This document shows, one piece after another, positions 2,362 to 12,945 of a stretch of 64,000 nucleotides of DNA; the first letter of the stretch is position 1, and every line of letters begins with the position of its first letter. The DNA is from a virus. The notes below the pieces were generated by a model. The model ran no database searches, was not told the DNA's origin, and worked only from the letters and a program-made list of their open reading frames with translations. The position numbers were made by a program, and so were the translations under genes. Where the stretch lies: positions 30,403 to 94,402 of IMG/VR virus record IMGVR_UViG_3300034073_004910, one strand, 5' to 3'.

Positions 2362-2427
2362 ATAATTCTCTAAAAGTGGTGCGGGTAGCCGGACTCGAAC
2401 CGGCACGCTATAAAAGCGACAGATTTT

Positions 2428-3076
2428 CTTACCACTACGTGTTTCCACGCCATTACTGTTTGTGGTCTGGACTTTGTCTTTACCATAGTGTTTCCACTTT
2501 AGGTACCTCGTGTAAAGTCTCTACACTCGTCTTTCGACTAGCACGGCGTTGCCATGACTAAAGGTTTCACCGTTTTAGCGAGGTCCACTTACTAAGTTTC
2601 CCTAGTAAGGCTCTTATTTGTATAGTGCGTTACAATAACTTCTTGCGAGCTAAAAGTTTCTATATTTTGAGAAGCTTTCCCAGCGCAGCTTCTGCTGCAA
2701 AACGGCCCTTTTTTCCTTTGCTTCTATTATGTTTAGCATCGTGTAGCTTTCTCCCTTCTAGGATAAAACTAGAATGGCACACTTCACATATAAAAGTTTG
2801 AGAGCCTATTCGTTTTGCGTCAAGTTTTGCATGTGCTGAGCGGTCAATAACCGCTAAGTTATCAATATCGTTATTAGTAACGTCTCCGTCAATGTGGTCT
2901 ACGGTTTCATTTTTGGTAAACTTTCTACCAATATGGTTTTCCATAATAAACTTAGGATATGAAACAGTTTTCTTTGTTCCATCAAGAAACACAATAACTA
3001 TTCTAGATCTATTATCCTTAGCTATGTAGGGGCCATATATTTTTTTAATATTTTCGTAAACCATACACTATACTAA
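2428..3076 (-). mobile_element. group I intron (IC3-like) carrying an HNH gene in its P1 loop
   Basis: The intron starts after exon U34 and ends in the expected terminal G (2428). After the HNH gene come a guide-like GAGCC (2613-2609) able to pair with exon CUU using the U-G splice-site wobble, and a P2 hairpin. Core segments follow that resemble the tRNA-Leu intron consensus: GTGTAGAGACTTTACACGAG and GGTAAAGACAAAGTCC, which form P7/P3-type pairings (AGACTTT with AAAGTC). The 0.45-kb insertion between splice site and guide places the endonuclease in L1. Subgroup assignment is by eye, so a covariance-model search would settle it. Confidence 0.82.
2660..3064 (-). CDS. intron-encoded HNH homing endonuclease
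   Basis: This 134-residue protein carries the HNH signature ETVDHIDGDVTNNDIDNL followed by an ASAHAKL-like helix (RSAHAKLDAKR). A zinc-knuckle Cys pair follows (FICEVCHSSF) with a basic C-terminus. It starts 12 bases inside the intron. The expected role is to cut intronless tRNA-Leu alleles and promote homing. The upstream sequence offers only a weak ribosome binding site. The location inside a catalytic intron makes homing endonuclease much likelier than a packaging HNH. Confidence 0.82.
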   Translation of the reverse strand: MVYENIKKIYGPYIAKDNRSRIVIVFLDGTKKTVSYPKFIMENHIGRKFTKNETVDHIDGDVTNNDIDNLAVIDRSAHAKLDAKRIGSQTFICEVCHSSFILEGRKLHDAKHNRSKGKKGRFAAEAALGKLLKI

Positions 3077-5306: not shown

Positions 5307-5411
5307 TCAGCCGAAAGGAAGCCCAGATGCTAATTCAAAAGCACCTACGCCTACCATCAACCCAAGAAGGGTAATACCGGCTTTTTCAAAAATGTTGGAA
5401 ATCGTGTTCAT
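5307..5411 (-). CDS. small membrane peptide, 34 aa (possible holin-related)
   Basis: ATG 5411 overlaps the stop of the small heat-shock gene (ATGA), and the frame ends six bases before the lysozyme-like gene. The peptide begins MNTISNIFEKAGITLLGLMV and forms a single hydrophobic helix. Position next to lysis genes suggests a holin, pinholin or antiholin-like role, but nothing in the sequence is diagnostic. Confidence 0.5.
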   Translation of the reverse strand: MNTISNIFEKAGITLLGLMVGVGAFELASGLPFG

Positions 5412-5794
5412 GATTGTATCTCAATATAATTGGCGGGGTTAACTGCCCGAGGCTTGAAAGTAATCTTTAATAGCCCGTCTTTAAACGTAGCGTCTGTCAC
5501 TTCAAGATTTTTTGGTACAAAAAAACTGCGCCGGAATGCTTTTCCACTTATACCCTTATGAATATAAGTTTCTGAGCTTAAACTTTTCTCTCCTTCTACA
5601 AGCAGAATACCGTTGTCAAAATGAATCTTCACTTGTTCTTTTGACCAACCTGGAAGAGCCAAATCTACTCTATAGTTCTGATCTTCAAGCTTTACGATAT
5701 TAAACCGAGGAAATGCGTCTACGTTCAGATCGCCAAAAAAGTCTGTAAAAAGCTTATCGCCACCCACAAAGAAGTGGTCAAGTAGTTTAGTCAT
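5408..5794 (-). CDS. small heat-shock protein (Hsp20/IbpA family)
   Basis: This 128-residue protein carries an alpha-crystallin domain: FPRFNIVKLEDQNYRVDLAL, PGWSKEQVKI, GILLVEGEK, then the G-AFRRSFFVP-ATFKDGLLKI block typical of IbpA/Hsp20. These ATP-independent chaperones hold unfolding proteins, and homologues are frequent in T4-like cyanophages. AGGAGA precedes the start. The stop overlaps the 34-aa membrane peptide gene, so translation is probably coupled. Confidence 0.85.
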   Translation of the reverse strand: MTKLLDHFFVGGDKLFTDFFGDLNVDAFPRFNIVKLEDQNYRVDLALPGWSKEQVKIHFDNGILLVEGEKSLSSETYIHKGISGKAFRRSFFVPKNLEVTDATFKDGLLKITFKPRAVNPANYIEIQS

Positions 5795-5841
5795 AATTTA
5801 TCTCCTAAAAAATAAACCCGCCCCTTGACGGAAGCGCCATA

Positions 5842-5872
5842 AAAAAGCTCACAGTAATACTGTGAGCTTTTT
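5842..5872 (-). terminator. strong symmetric terminator hairpin
   Basis: AAAAAGCTCACAGTA is followed after one base by its exact reverse complement, giving A- and T-tracts on both sides. It sits 10 bases after the stop of the minus-strand gene at 5883-6074 and can act in both directions. Confidence 0.85.
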
Positions 5873-6135: not shown

Positions 6136-6267
6136 CTAGAGAATTCTAGCCACATTATCGAACCCATCCTCTTCCTCGTCTTTATCCCACCAGTCCGAAC
6201 TTTCTCGAGTGGAATAAATATCGTTAACACCAGCAAACAAAAGTATAATAACTAAAAATAAATTCAC
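6136..6267 (-). CDS. small secreted or membrane protein, 43 aa, GTG start
   Basis: The frame uses GTG at 6265-6267 with AGGAAAA upstream. It encodes a hydrophobic N-terminus (VNLFLVIILLFAGVNDIY) and an acidic tail containing SSDWWDKDEEEDG. It lies between the tmRNA and the holin-like gene. The evidence is an open frame, a ribosome site and sensible composition, with no known homologue. Confidence 0.4.
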   Translation of the reverse strand: MNLFLVIILLFAGVNDIYSTRESSDWWDKDEEEDGFDNVARIL

Positions 6268-6284
6268 TATTGTTTTCCTAATTA

Positions 6285-6634
6285 GTGGGAGTTTTTCTGT
6301 TGCGAGGAGGTTCCTTTGGGGAACACAAAACTCCCGAAACCCCGAGAAATCATGCTGCTACAGCATATTCCTCATTATAAAAGTCATCGTTTGCTTTTAT
6401 ATTTATTTGCTTCTTCGACCGGGAAGTCCCAATCCTAACGGCTTTCGCATTGCCGGATCGTCCGCGTCTTTTTCCTGCTCTGTCGAAACCAGAACACCCC
6501 CATCAAAGTATACTCTGTCGCCGTTTTTGCTACGCTGGTAACGACCAAGACCTCAAAGAATATACTTTGGTGGAGGTGGGCGGAGTCGAACCGCCTTCCA
6601 AAACAGTTCCAATCAACATCATACGATCATAATT
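6285..6634 (-). ncRNA. ssrA: permuted two-piece tmRNA (tag ANDDFYNEEYAVAA)
   Basis: The acceptor piece comes first on the minus strand (about 6634-6568). It has T-arm GGCGG-TTCGACT-CCGCC, acceptor strand CACCTCC, A and encoded CCA. An intervening segment whose ends pair (AAAGTATA/TATACTTT) leads to the coding piece (6501 to about 6285). That piece starts GGGGGTG-TTCTGGTTTCGACAG, the classic tmRNA 5' end, and GGGGGTG pairs with CACCTCC. A resume frame at 6394-6350 encodes ANDDFYNEEYAVAA and a stop. A stem GGGAGTTTT/AAAACTCCC with an internal hairpin GTTCC/GGAAC follows. The order 3'-part then 5'-part defines a permuted gene. The exact outer ends are estimates. Confidence 0.9.
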
Positions 6635-6700
6635 GCTCAGTTTGGATTCGAACCTTGTCCGTGTATTGTCTACCCGCACGTCCCACCGTACTGACCGAGC
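6635..6700 (-). other. tRNA-like element upstream of the tmRNA acceptor piece
   Basis: The ends GCTCGGT and ACTGAGC can pair over 7 bp. A D-arm-like hairpin (GTAC/GTGC) and a T-loop-like GGTTCGAATCC are present. The T-stem is only 2 bp, no good anticodon arm with U33 can be drawn, and no CCA is encoded. It may be a decayed tRNA or a folded processing signal, since its 3' end abuts the tmRNA acceptor piece. Confidence 0.35.
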
Positions 6701-6728
6701 AAATTTATTTATTTACTTTACAGTGAGT

Positions 6729-6757
6729 ATTATAGTAAATCTTGAGCTAAAGGTCAA
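6729..6757 (-). promoter_or_regulatory. sigma70-type promoter of the tmRNA unit
   Basis: On the minus strand TTGACC (6757-6752) and TATAAT (6734-6729) are spaced by 17 bp. The start point would be near 6722, just before the tRNA-like element and tmRNA. Confidence 0.75.
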
Positions 6758-7014
6758 GAATTATTTTTGGGGAGGCTAGCGTTTTTATGACTATAAAACT
6801 CCTCTAAGTGCTCTTTGAAAGTGTTATAAGTTTTGTCAAACTTATAGCTATAGAGAGTTACAAGCGAGAGCATAAAATTGTCGATTTTATCCGTAAACTC
6901 AGCCGACAGCCCAGCAAATTCTTCGCTATCCAAAACTTCTCGAAAAAGTTTCAGATCGTCAATAATTTGCCAGACTTCCATAAGCTGTTGTTCAAGATCA
7001 AATTGTTTGCTCAT
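6754..7014 (-). CDS. FDLEQQ-family small protein (paralogue of 7689-8138)
   Basis: This 86-residue protein starts MSKQFDLEQQLMEVWQIIDD. The N-terminal block FDLEQQ(L/I)M..W.I(I/V)DDLK is shared with the 149-residue protein 0.7 kb upstream, so the two are paralogues and this one is shorter. The pattern is seen in other large phages without assigned function. The rest is predicted helical. It is the last gene before the tmRNA promoter. Confidence 0.65.
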   Translation of the reverse strand: MSKQFDLEQQLMEVWQIIDDLKLFREVLDSEEFAGLSAEFTDKIDNFMLSLVTLYSYKFDKTYNTFKEHLEEFYSHKNASLPKNNS

Positions 7015-11904: not shown

Positions 11905-12299
11905 TAGATATCTCCTTTTGCGCGATTTTCAGAATTTTCTACTTGAAATCCGTTTGGATAACGAGCGCTCAACTTATGAATATTTTCATTAATAACCGAT
12001 TGCGGATCGAACTCGAGTGCTCGACAGGCCGAAATCCAATAAAAGAAAATATCTCCAAGTTCGCGCTTCATGTGATAGATATTATCACCTGTCATGGGCT
12101 TGCCTTGAAAGAAGATTTTCTTCACAACTTCTTGAAACTCTCCAGTCTCGCTTCCCAGCCCAATGGCAGAAGTGAGAAGCAGCGGAGCATTGACAGTATC
12201 ATTATGCAACTCTCGAAGGCGATCTGCAAAGGACGTTAGATAAGTACTTTGATCGCTAGTAATACTCGCAATAAACTTTGAATACTGATTAAGATTCAT
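11904..12299 (-). CDS. MazG-like nucleotide pyrophosphohydrolase
   Basis: This 131-residue protein contains LLTSAIGLGSETGEFQEVVK followed by a second helix MKRELGDIFFYWISACRAL, the MazG/all-alpha NTP-PPase metal-binding pattern (E..E...K ... E..D). The C-terminal VINENIHKLSARYPNGF is typical of phage members. It would hydrolyse (d)NTPs or ppGpp-like nucleotides. It partners with adjacent ThyX in nucleotide metabolism and overlaps it by 11 nt. Confidence 0.8.
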   Translation of the reverse strand: MNLNQYSKFIASITSDQSTYLTSFADRLRELHNDTVNAPLLLTSAIGLGSETGEFQEVVKKIFFQGKPMTGDNIYHMKRELGDIFFYWISACRALEFDPQSVINENIHKLSARYPNGFQVENSENRAKGDI

Positions 12300-12945
12300 C
12301 TTTTTTTCCGTTCAATAGTTCGAAAAGAATTTGTCCACAAGCCTGAGCAATTTTTTGATGCTCTTTTTGAGTTCCATTTGCGGAGCGCAGTTCTACATAA
12401 TGTAGCCAAGATCGCACTGTACCCGCCATATAAAGACGCGAAGGCGTCATACCTTCTGGAAGAACAGCTCTCGCTTGCTCTTTTGCTATTCCATTTTCCA
12501 GAGCACTATTATACACATCTTGAGCGTGCAATGCAAGTTCTTTTTGTAGCGTTGCCCAAAGTTCGTTCAAATTTTCATTTGTAGATTCAATGGAGTTTTG
12601 TCGATTTTTTGTATCTTGAAGCCTGGTTTCTCGAATTTCCCACTCCGTTGGGACGATTGAGTATCTTTGGCTAAACTCCTGAAAGGAAAAGCTACGATGC
12701 CGAAGTATTTGACGAGCAATGTCTCGAGTTGTATTAATTTCCATACAAACCCAAGCCATTTCAAATGGACTCCAGTGTCCATGTTTTTGCAAATAATTTA
12801 ACAGCTTAGGAGCTGTTTCTGTATTTATTTGATTTTCTGGGTTTGATACTCGAGCAACATACGCAATCAAATCAGATAAAGTTTGCAGACCAAGAGATTG
12901 TAAGTCTTCGCTAGGAGTGGAGTAAGAAATTAATTTTACATTCAT
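12289..12945 (-). CDS. thyX: flavin-dependent thymidylate synthase ThyX
   Basis: This 218-residue protein has the ThyX signature in the form RHRSFSFQEFSQRY (canonical RHRxxSxNExSxRY with Gln for Asn), preceded by HGHWSPFEMAWVCMEINTTR. EQARAVLPEGMTPSRLYMAG contributes the substrate-binding region. It makes dTMP from dUMP with FAD and methylenetetrahydrofolate. Length is normal. ATG 12945 overlaps the stop of the upstream gene. Confidence 0.93.
   Translation of the reverse strand: MNVKLISYSTPSEDLQSLGLQTLSDLIAYVARVSNPENQINTETAPKLLNYLQKHGHWSPFEMAWVCMEINTTRDIARQILRHRSFSFQEFSQRYSIVPTEWEIRETRLQDTKNRQNSIESTNENLNELWATLQKELALHAQDVYNSALENGIAKEQARAVLPEGMTPSRLYMAGTVRSWLHYVELRSANGTQKEHQKIAQACGQILFELLNGKKDES

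What the first reader, a model, noticed from the sequence alone, without database searches (positions are those of the whole stretch)
6285..6700. Phage-encoded permuted (two-piece) tmRNA
The acceptor half (CCA end, T-arm) precedes the coding half (GGGGGTG-TTCTGGTTTCGAC...) on the minus strand. The acceptor strands are complementary, the intervening ends pair, and the tag ANDDFYNEEYAVAA ends in the AVAA degron. Permuted tmRNAs are established for alphaproteobacteria, some betaproteobacteria and cyanobacteria. Phage tmRNAs I know of are one-piece. The tag is close to the Caulobacter type (ANDNFAEEFAVAA), which hints at the host lineage.
Basis: partly seen in the sequence, partly recalled or inferred. 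Interest (0 to 1): 0.9.

Follow-up and report, generated by a model that had tools for sequence, protein, structure and literature searches.

The report
Phage two-piece tmRNA with extra hairpin
A T5-like phage carries a real, rearranged (two-piece) ribosome-rescue RNA; phages with such RNAs were already known, but this one belongs to a viral branch marked by an extra hairpin.

Summary
On the minus strand at about 6632-6287 lies a permuted tmRNA gene: acceptor half, 66-nt spacer, then coding half with tag ANDDFYNEEYAVAA. ARAGORN calls tmRNA*; Rfam tmRNA_permuted scores 116.4 bits (E 4.9e-22). Acceptor stem, G3-U70, CCA and T arm are intact. The record is a T5-like phage.

The claim of novelty does not hold. 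Two-piece phage tmRNAs are in print (PMC9004378: 53 predictions). Of 16 INPHARED records I tested, 12 have one, 10 of them phages of Pseudomonas, Xanthomonas, Stenotrophomonas, Acinetobacter, Achromobacter or Alcaligenes. The tag therefore says little about the host.

Less ordinary: the window tmRNA has an 18-nt hairpin between PK1 and tag (TTAG-hairpin-GAAGAAGCAA). A relaxed pattern finds it widely in IMG/VR: 90 of 123 matches carry tmRNA signals, 87 an ARAGORN permuted call. It covaries (63 compensatory cells, shuffles 18). A model of it scores 76-79 bits in four members (all training rows), but at most 25.5 bits, outside tmRNA, in 398 Pseudomonadota genomes. Other phyla were not searched. 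I call it a new variant of a known kind. The hairpin's function is unknown.

The parts
6729..6757 (-). sigma-70-type promoter TTGACC-17-TATAAT directly upstream of the tmRNA transcript
   Evidence: 11 of 12 consensus positions; 2 sites found in the region, shuffles mean 2.0, so the count alone is not significant; position and match are the argument
6633..6701 (-). degenerate tRNA-like sequence abutting the acceptor piece (8-bp acceptor stem, GGTTCGAATCC, but 2-bp T stem, no U33, no CCA)
   Evidence: ARAGORN finds it at the 85% but not the 90% threshold; 0 of 1000 dinucleotide shuffles reach 85%; no Rfam tRNA match at E<=10; MFE z -2.5 (80 nt) or -1.55 (69 nt)
6568..6632 (-). acceptor piece of the tmRNA: 5' motif TTATGATCGTATGATG, T arm 6595-6579, acceptor 3' strand CACCTCC 6578-6572, ACCA 6571-6568; the 5' end is inferred
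6502..6567 (-). intervening segment, 66 nt, ends paired (AAGTATA...TATACTT), UUUGAU just before the coding piece
   Evidence: fold z -1.50
6287..6501 (-). coding piece: acceptor 5' strand GGGGGTG 6501-6495, D loop TGGTTTCGAC, PK1 hairpin, extra hairpin, tag, 3' stem; the 3' end is inferred
6439..6455 (-). PK1 hairpin CGGC...GCCG
   Evidence: 4 of 4 pairs formed in all 51 rows, 2 with compensatory changes (the outer two have their 3' bases fixed by the search pattern)
6417..6434 (-). extra hairpin GATTGGG-ACTT-CCCGGTC, the mark of the viral subfamily
   Evidence: 7 pairs, 99.4% of cells paired, 3 pairs with changes on both sides
6350..6394 (-). tag reading frame, resume codon GCA, ANDDFYNEEYAVAA, stop TGA
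6287..6335 (-). 3'-terminal stem GGGAGTTTT...AAAACTCCC, possibly crossed by GGGG/CCCC into a pseudoknot (read by eye)
   Evidence: z -2.25, 6 of 200 shuffles fold as well
5841..5872 (-). terminator-like inverted repeat AAAAAGCTCACAG...CTGTGAGCTTTTTT downstream of the small ORF at 6074-5883
   Evidence: read from the sequence; self-complementary hit; not in the scan's own list

Best explanation
This is a working permuted (two-piece) tmRNA gene of a T5-like phage. One transcript starts at the promoter at 6757-6729. The acceptor and coding halves fold into one tRNA-like domain across the 66-nt spacer. Host RNase P and 3' processing cut the spacer out, leaving two RNAs held by base pairing. Host AlaRS charges it through G3-U70, and with host SmpB it rescues ribosomes stalled on broken mRNA, adding ANDDFYNEEYAVAA, which host proteases degrade. 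The likely benefit is to keep ribosomes available while host and phage mRNAs are cut up. It belongs to a viral subfamily with an added covarying hairpin between PK1 and the tag. Shown here: gene anatomy, recurrence of the subfamily, covariation, no SmpB match in the 94-kb record. Inferred: transcription, processing, charging, rescue and benefit.
For: ARAGORN tmRNA* and RF04321 116.4 bits. Intact 7-pair acceptor, G3-U70, discriminator A, CCA, T arm. Promoter of 11/12 at the right place. In the related viral loci the 55 distinct copies that my parser could read keep 7 acceptor pairs (12 different pairings), G3-U70 and discriminator A; 52 of 55 encode CCA; 51 of 55 have UGAU before the coding piece (89 examined, 14 redundant, 20 not parsed; the parser itself asked for at least 6 acceptor pairs, at least 4 T-stem pairs and CC). 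Compensatory changes in PK1 and the extra hairpin. SmpB family PF01668: 0 matches in the own record, with 10 of 14 control genomes positive, so host SmpB would have to serve. T5-like identity: terminase, portal, head and tail families, terminase 47-48% identical to Klebsiella T5-like phages.
Against: No RNA data: two pieces, charging and tagging are not shown. The beta model is passed by only 1.5 bits and the alpha model by 0.1 bit, so it is a divergent copy. The promoter scan found no more sites than shuffles. The record is classed as linear by IMG/VR and may be a fragment, so a phage smpB outside it is not excluded. The host is unknown.
Confidence: 0.87

Rival explanations
1. A decoy or inhibitor: a tmRNA-like RNA that competes with the host tmRNA and blocks trans-translation, as the CDS-less tmRNA of phage DS6A is reported to do when expressed in E. 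coli.
For: A phage inhibitor of the endogenous tmRNA is reported (PMC11915505, passage read). The added hairpin near PK1 could alter ribosome passage (inference).
Against: The tag frame is intact with resume codon GCA, an AA ending and a stop, and tags with AA ends recur in the family. A decoy would not need to keep a tag.
Confidence: 0.07
2. A host tmRNA captured recently and carried as a passenger without function.
For: Phages often carry tRNA genes and pieces of ssrA (recalled; pieces of ssrA in prophages also in a passage of PMC9004378); a degenerate tRNA lies beside it.
Against: The paired elements are intact and the family shows compensatory change. No close bacterial match: 0 of 398 genomes with the hairpin block at up to 3 mismatches; a T-arm/acceptor/D-loop pattern found 0 genome contigs, a second one, one T-stem base freer but with a 30-60 nt spacer that excludes the window's own 66 nt, found 2, both Herbaspirillum.
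Confidence: 0.04
3. The contig stretch is bacterial or the match is chance.
For: IMG/VR contigs are predicted viruses.
Against: E 4.9e-22; phage terminase, portal, capsid and tail genes on the same record; the same locus in a second record.
Confidence: 0.01

Closest known systems
Two-piece ssrA of Methylophilales phage Melnitz and Pelagibacter phage Mosig (PMC9004378)
   Same: Phage-encoded permuted tmRNA; Mosig tested here, RF04321 93.6 bits. Melnitz itself was not fetched.
   Different: Melnitz has a glutamine riboswitch at its ssrA; none was found in the window. Mosig shows no match to the hairpin model at E<=1 in L065. Both are myophages, not T5-like.
Betaproteobacterial permuted tmRNA, Rfam RF01850
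   Same: Overall layout; acceptor GGGGGTG/CACCTCC and UGAU before the coding piece, as in Herbaspirillum for L058; best subtype score 85.5 bits.
   Different: Only 1.5 bits above cut-off; 18-nt hairpin inserted between PK1 and tag.
Alphaproteobacterial permuted tmRNA (Caulobacter type), Rfam RF01849
   Different: 50.1 bits against a cut-off of 50; weaker than beta.
Permuted tmRNAs of Pseudomonas Samunavirus SM1, Xanthomonas XacN1/X1/Rb1, Stenotrophomonas Moby/DLP6, Acinetobacter BUCT628/3098, Achromobacter JWDelta, Alcaligenes QDWS595
   Same: Phage-borne, permuted, G3-U70.
   Different: With the hairpin model only Rb1 (13.6 bits) and XacN1 (11.7 bits) appear at E<=1, against 76.5 for the window. 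Acinetobacter 3098 does not encode the full CCA.
T5-like (Demerecviridae-type) phages
   Same: Terminase 47-48% identical over 98% to the 20 listed Klebsiella phages.
   Different: Under 60% identity to all 1407 phage records matched; best blastn match of the tmRNA region among INPHARED phages covers 9%.

Membership tests
Permuted tmRNA (RF04321) | Covariance-model match over the curated cut-off | tested here: met
   116.4 bits against 47; below the cut-off the model also rings on standard tmRNAs (124 of 185 genomes at E<=0.001, 3 over the cut-off)
Permuted tmRNA (RF04321) | Acceptor half precedes coding half, spacer between with paired ends | tested here: met
Permuted tmRNA (RF04321) | Alanine identity G3-U70 and CCA end | tested here: met
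Permuted tmRNA (RF04321) | Tag frame with resume codon and degron-like AA end | tested here: met
Permuted tmRNA (RF04321) | Mature RNA in two pieces, aminoacylated with alanine | not testable with these tools
   needs RNA from infected cells
beta_tmRNA (RF01850) | Score over cut-off | tested here: met
   85.5 against 84, marginal
alpha_tmRNA (RF01849) | Score over cut-off and best of the subtypes | tested here: inconclusive
   50.1 against 50, but beta is the match kept
Melnitz-type ssrA under a glutamine riboswitch | glnA-type riboswitch at the gene | tested here: not met
   no riboswitch in the Rfam scans of the window and of 6200-6900
Viral TTAG-hairpin-GAAGAAGCAA subfamily (defined here) | Extra covarying hairpin between PK1 and tag | tested here: met
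   window scores 76.5 bits with R1, but it is one of the 51 training rows; the patterns were drawn from the window and L044, the latter first found by its T-arm pattern

The most novel reading that the evidence does not exclude
There is a large virus-owned lineage of permuted tmRNAs, spread across unrelated phage groups by transfer between phages, marked by an added structured hairpin beside PK1 that host tmRNAs lack. The hairpin is a viral adaptation, for example one that lets the phage tmRNA out-compete the host tmRNA or escape a host or phage nuclease, or binds a phage or ribosomal factor.
Probability: 0.35. Interest if true: 0.68.

Novelty: new variant of a known kind. Interest (0 to 1): 0.45.

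Why it matters
Ribosome rescue during infection is little studied (recalled). A common viral tmRNA branch with a distinct structural insert would suggest that phages keep and tune their own rescue system. It also means that a permuted tmRNA in a viral contig should not be used alone to assign an alpha-, beta- or cyanobacterial host. The covariance model for the hairpin gives a simple way to look for the branch in metagenomes. In 11 of the 12 named phage records with a permuted tmRNA that I opened, no tmRNA is annotated at its place.

Tried and rejected
Upstream tRNA-like sequence as a conserved processing handle: rejected as a family feature. It is beyond chance in the window (0 of 1000 shuffles at the 85% threshold), but of 72 distinct upstreams in the subfamily only the window has such a sequence within 45 nt at that threshold and one other (L173) has a tRNA found at the default threshold. 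A tRNA lies 6 nt before the acceptor piece in Menderavirus Moby and 40 nt before it in Samunavirus SM1, and a weak one near that of XacN1. The 85% threshold also reported a tRNA across the promoter stretch of L042, so it is not free of false calls. I read the window sequence as a decayed tRNA.

tRNA-like cloverleaf inside the spacer (as in L042): 18 spacers examined, found only in L042 (L064 and L065 were not in that set). No Rfam tRNA match over its cut-off there. The window spacer does not show it.

Host from tmRNA similarity: the first bacterial pattern found 0 contigs, the second, with a shorter spacer range than the window's, 2 Herbaspirillum contigs. Not enough to name a host.

Vertical descent of the tmRNA in the T5-like group: mixed. 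Of 17 records behind terminase relatives (of 36 loci found), 3 carry a permuted tmRNA over the cut-off, one of them the same virus. The sisters G005 and G002 show no match to the hairpin model (L040, L042), and in the tree they group with SM1 (97/95) and JWDelta (97/97), while the window groups with L044 (90/82, not starred) (19 rows, 11 of 16 inner branches open, 3 bacterial rows; L003, like L002, and L064 were left out). But G866 (L126), terminase 65% identical to the window's, has the block. Of 20 records with the block, 2 matched the window terminase, one only at 25% identity.

Results against a virus-only hairpin: only Pseudomonadota were sampled (398 genomes, the latter with stricter filters; 300 genomes of one order: 10 genomes match at up to one mismatch, none with the hairpin by eye, fewer than the 20 matches of the backwards control). 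Other phyla were not searched. IMG/VR contigs are predicted viruses and may include host DNA. The relaxed pattern fixes CGTTAG and GAAGAAGCAA, so those columns are invariant by construction. 33 of 123 matches had no tmRNA signal and were dropped without inspection; 3 of the 90 kept (L120, L144, L211) rest on context without an ARAGORN call, of which L120 passes RF04321 and the other two were not tested with it.

A first version of the acceptor parser read only 25 distinct copies; it was loosened.

Full report
What is there. On the minus strand the window holds, in order: a sigma-70-like promoter TTGACC-17-TATAAT at 6757-6729 (11 of 12 positions, though the region has no more such sites than shuffles); a degenerate tRNA at 6701-6633; the tmRNA acceptor piece at 6632-6568; a 66-nt intervening segment at 6567-6502; and the coding piece from 6501 to about 6287. 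ARAGORN calls tmRNA* with tag ANDDFYNEEYAVAA. Rfam release 15 gives tmRNA_permuted 116.4 bits, E 4.9e-22, and beta_tmRNA 85.5 bits against a cut-off of 84; alpha_tmRNA gives 50.1 against 50. The acceptor stem has 7 of 7 pairs with G3-U70, discriminator A and an encoded CCA; the T stem has 5 pairs; the spacer ends form an 11-bp stem, though the whole spacer fold is not significant (z -1.50). The tag frame runs 6394-6350.

Whose genome. The window is 30403-94402 of a 94,402-base IMG/VR record. It has terminase, portal, head and tail proteins; the terminase is 47-48% identical to the 20 listed Klebsiella phages, which I take as T5-like (the group name is recalled). Thirty-six IMG/VR terminase relatives were found. 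A second record, G001, is identical over the 3,500 bases compared and is counted as the same virus. No SmpB match in the record. The host is not known.

Is a two-piece phage tmRNA new? No. The Melnitz paper (PMC9004378; passages read) describes one under a glutamine riboswitch and reports 402 of 18,146 phage genomes with tmRNA, 133 unique structures, 53 of them two-piece by ARAGORN, 50 of those marine or aquatic. The tmRNA database paper (PMC11915505; passages read) lists 79 bacteriophage sequences and made the permuted model used here. The Marzo note (PMC8928761; passages read) calls its phage tmRNA Betaproteobacter-class. Eight paper searches were made; I saw no description of the hairpin subfamily below in their listings or in those passages, but most subscription papers are not held and the listed papers other than these three were not opened.

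How common is it in named phages? Starting from blastn hits I tested 16 INPHARED records, chosen by hand, with RF04321: 12 over the cut-off (5 of 5; 7 of 11). They are Pseudomonas SM1, Xanthomonas XacN1 (two copies), X1 and Rb1, Achromobacter JWDelta, Alcaligenes QDWS595, Acinetobacter BUCT628 and 3098, Stenotrophomonas Moby and DLP6, Pelagibacter Mosig (a published case) and Synechococcus BUCT-ZZ01. The four not over it are VspSw_1 and Slicko01 (no match), Sushi23 (37.0) and MT835879 (32.7), the last two standard by ARAGORN. Of the 12 records, Mosig has a tmRNA feature at the place; the tables of the other 11 show none there, although some relatives of Moby, such as Marzo, are annotated. In 185 genomes of the class of a Herbaspirillum genome, 3 pass the cut-off (with stricter filters): the Herbaspirillum itself, one other that ARAGORN calls permuted, and one that it calls standard. 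That Pseudomonas, Xanthomonas, Stenotrophomonas and Acinetobacter have one-piece tmRNA is recalled, not tested genome by genome. If so, a permuted tmRNA in a phage does not tell the host.

The extra hairpin. Against the permuted consensus the window has a 20-nt insertion after PK1. It is an 18-nt hairpin in the frame TTAG-hairpin-GAAGAAGCAA. The exact block with a mostly free loop occurs in 9 IMG/VR stretches, one of them the same virus; the other 8 each carry a permuted tmRNA over the cut-off (93.7 to 119 bits). Of 123 matches examined, the window and earlier loci included, 90 have tmRNA signals, 87 of them an ARAGORN tmRNA* call. The 90 reduce to 51 distinct 54-nt rows. On these, 99.6% of cells pair, 5 of 11 pairs have changes on both sides, 63 cells are compensatory (shuffles 18.1, sd 7.9; 0 of 500 as high), and the covariation score is 0.362 (shuffles 0.176; 0 of 500), while slid structures pair 21-47%; the number of further pair types (13) is not unusual (72 of 500 shuffles as high). 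The commonest swaps are A-U to G-C at the second pair of the hairpin (25 rows each) and G-C to A-U at the sixth (14 rows). So the hairpin is very likely real RNA structure under selection, with the usual caution that the rows are related.

Where the hairpin is not. INPHARED phages: no match to the 70-nt window stretch, and searches with two other members list no place that covers the hairpin (6 of 6 records, 40 of 67 listed). Plasmids: none. Model R1 over 25 sources finds the 4 members at 76.5-79.3 bits (all training rows) and nothing else above 13.6, with the Mosig gene, the T5-like sisters and Herbaspirillum among the sources. In 398 Pseudomonadota genomes the block at up to 3 mismatches has 0 matches, and R1 gives 2 weak matches of 25.5 and 24.0 bits in places where ARAGORN finds no tmRNA. 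Other phyla were not searched.

How it works. The anatomy is that of working two-piece tmRNAs: transcription from the promoter, folding of both halves into one tRNA domain, removal of the spacer by RNase P and 3' processing, alanine charging, entry into stalled ribosomes with host SmpB, tagging, degradation (steps inferred from the known pathway). The 55 distinct subfamily members that could be parsed keep 7 acceptor pairs, G3-U70 and discriminator A, in 12 different acceptor pairings; 52 encode CCA and 51 keep UGAU before the coding piece (20 of 89 not parsed). The hairpin's role is open; I can only say that it sits beside PK1, upstream of the resume codon, the region that sets the reading frame in known tmRNAs (recalled).

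Evolution. In a small tree (19 rows, 3 bacterial, 11 of 16 inner branches open) the tmRNAs of the T5-like sisters G005 and G002 group with those of Pseudomonas SM1 (97/95) and Achromobacter JWDelta (97/97) rather than with the window. This suggests exchange between phages but does not prove it. The record G866 (terminase 65% identical to the window's) does share the hairpin, which speaks for some descent within the T5-like group.

Verdict. A sound observation with an overstated novelty claim.

Noticed in passing
window 6633-6701 (-): Degenerate tRNA directly upstream of the acceptor piece: good acceptor stem and T loop, 2-bp T stem, no U33, no CCA.
   Followed up: yes
window 2377-2448 (-): Another tRNA-like sequence with an intact T arm and CCA that ARAGORN reports at 80% but not 90% threshold.
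   Followed up: partly
L042 1132-1214: The spacer of the permuted tmRNA in a T5-like sister phage (G002) folds as a tRNA-like cloverleaf with its own T arm; ARAGORN finds it at 90% threshold, Rfam does not match it as a tRNA over its cut-off.
   Followed up: partly
L051 and L055 (Xanthomonas phage XacN1): Two equally scoring permuted tmRNA genes 319 kb apart in one record, perhaps in long terminal repeats; about 1 kb from the first lie two tRNAs with CUA anticodons.
   Followed up: no
L119, L126: Permuted tmRNAs whose acceptor ends in CCT rather than CCA in the DNA, so the host would have to remake the end.
   Followed up: no
L048 1487-1563 and L046 20-178: Alcaligenes phage tRNA with a UUA (stop) anticodon and XacN1 tRNAs with CUA anticodons, possible suppressor tRNAs.
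   Followed up: no
window 5408-5794, 1771-2142, 12289-12945 (-): Phage-borne Hsp20-like protein, S-adenosylmethionine decarboxylase and ThyX-like thymidylate synthase in the same accessory region.
   Followed up: no
L071 and L072: In the T5-like sisters G005 and G002 the tmRNA also lies about 1 to 3 kb from the thyX homologue (about 6 kb in the window's record), so the region may be a shared site for RNA genes.
   Followed up: partly
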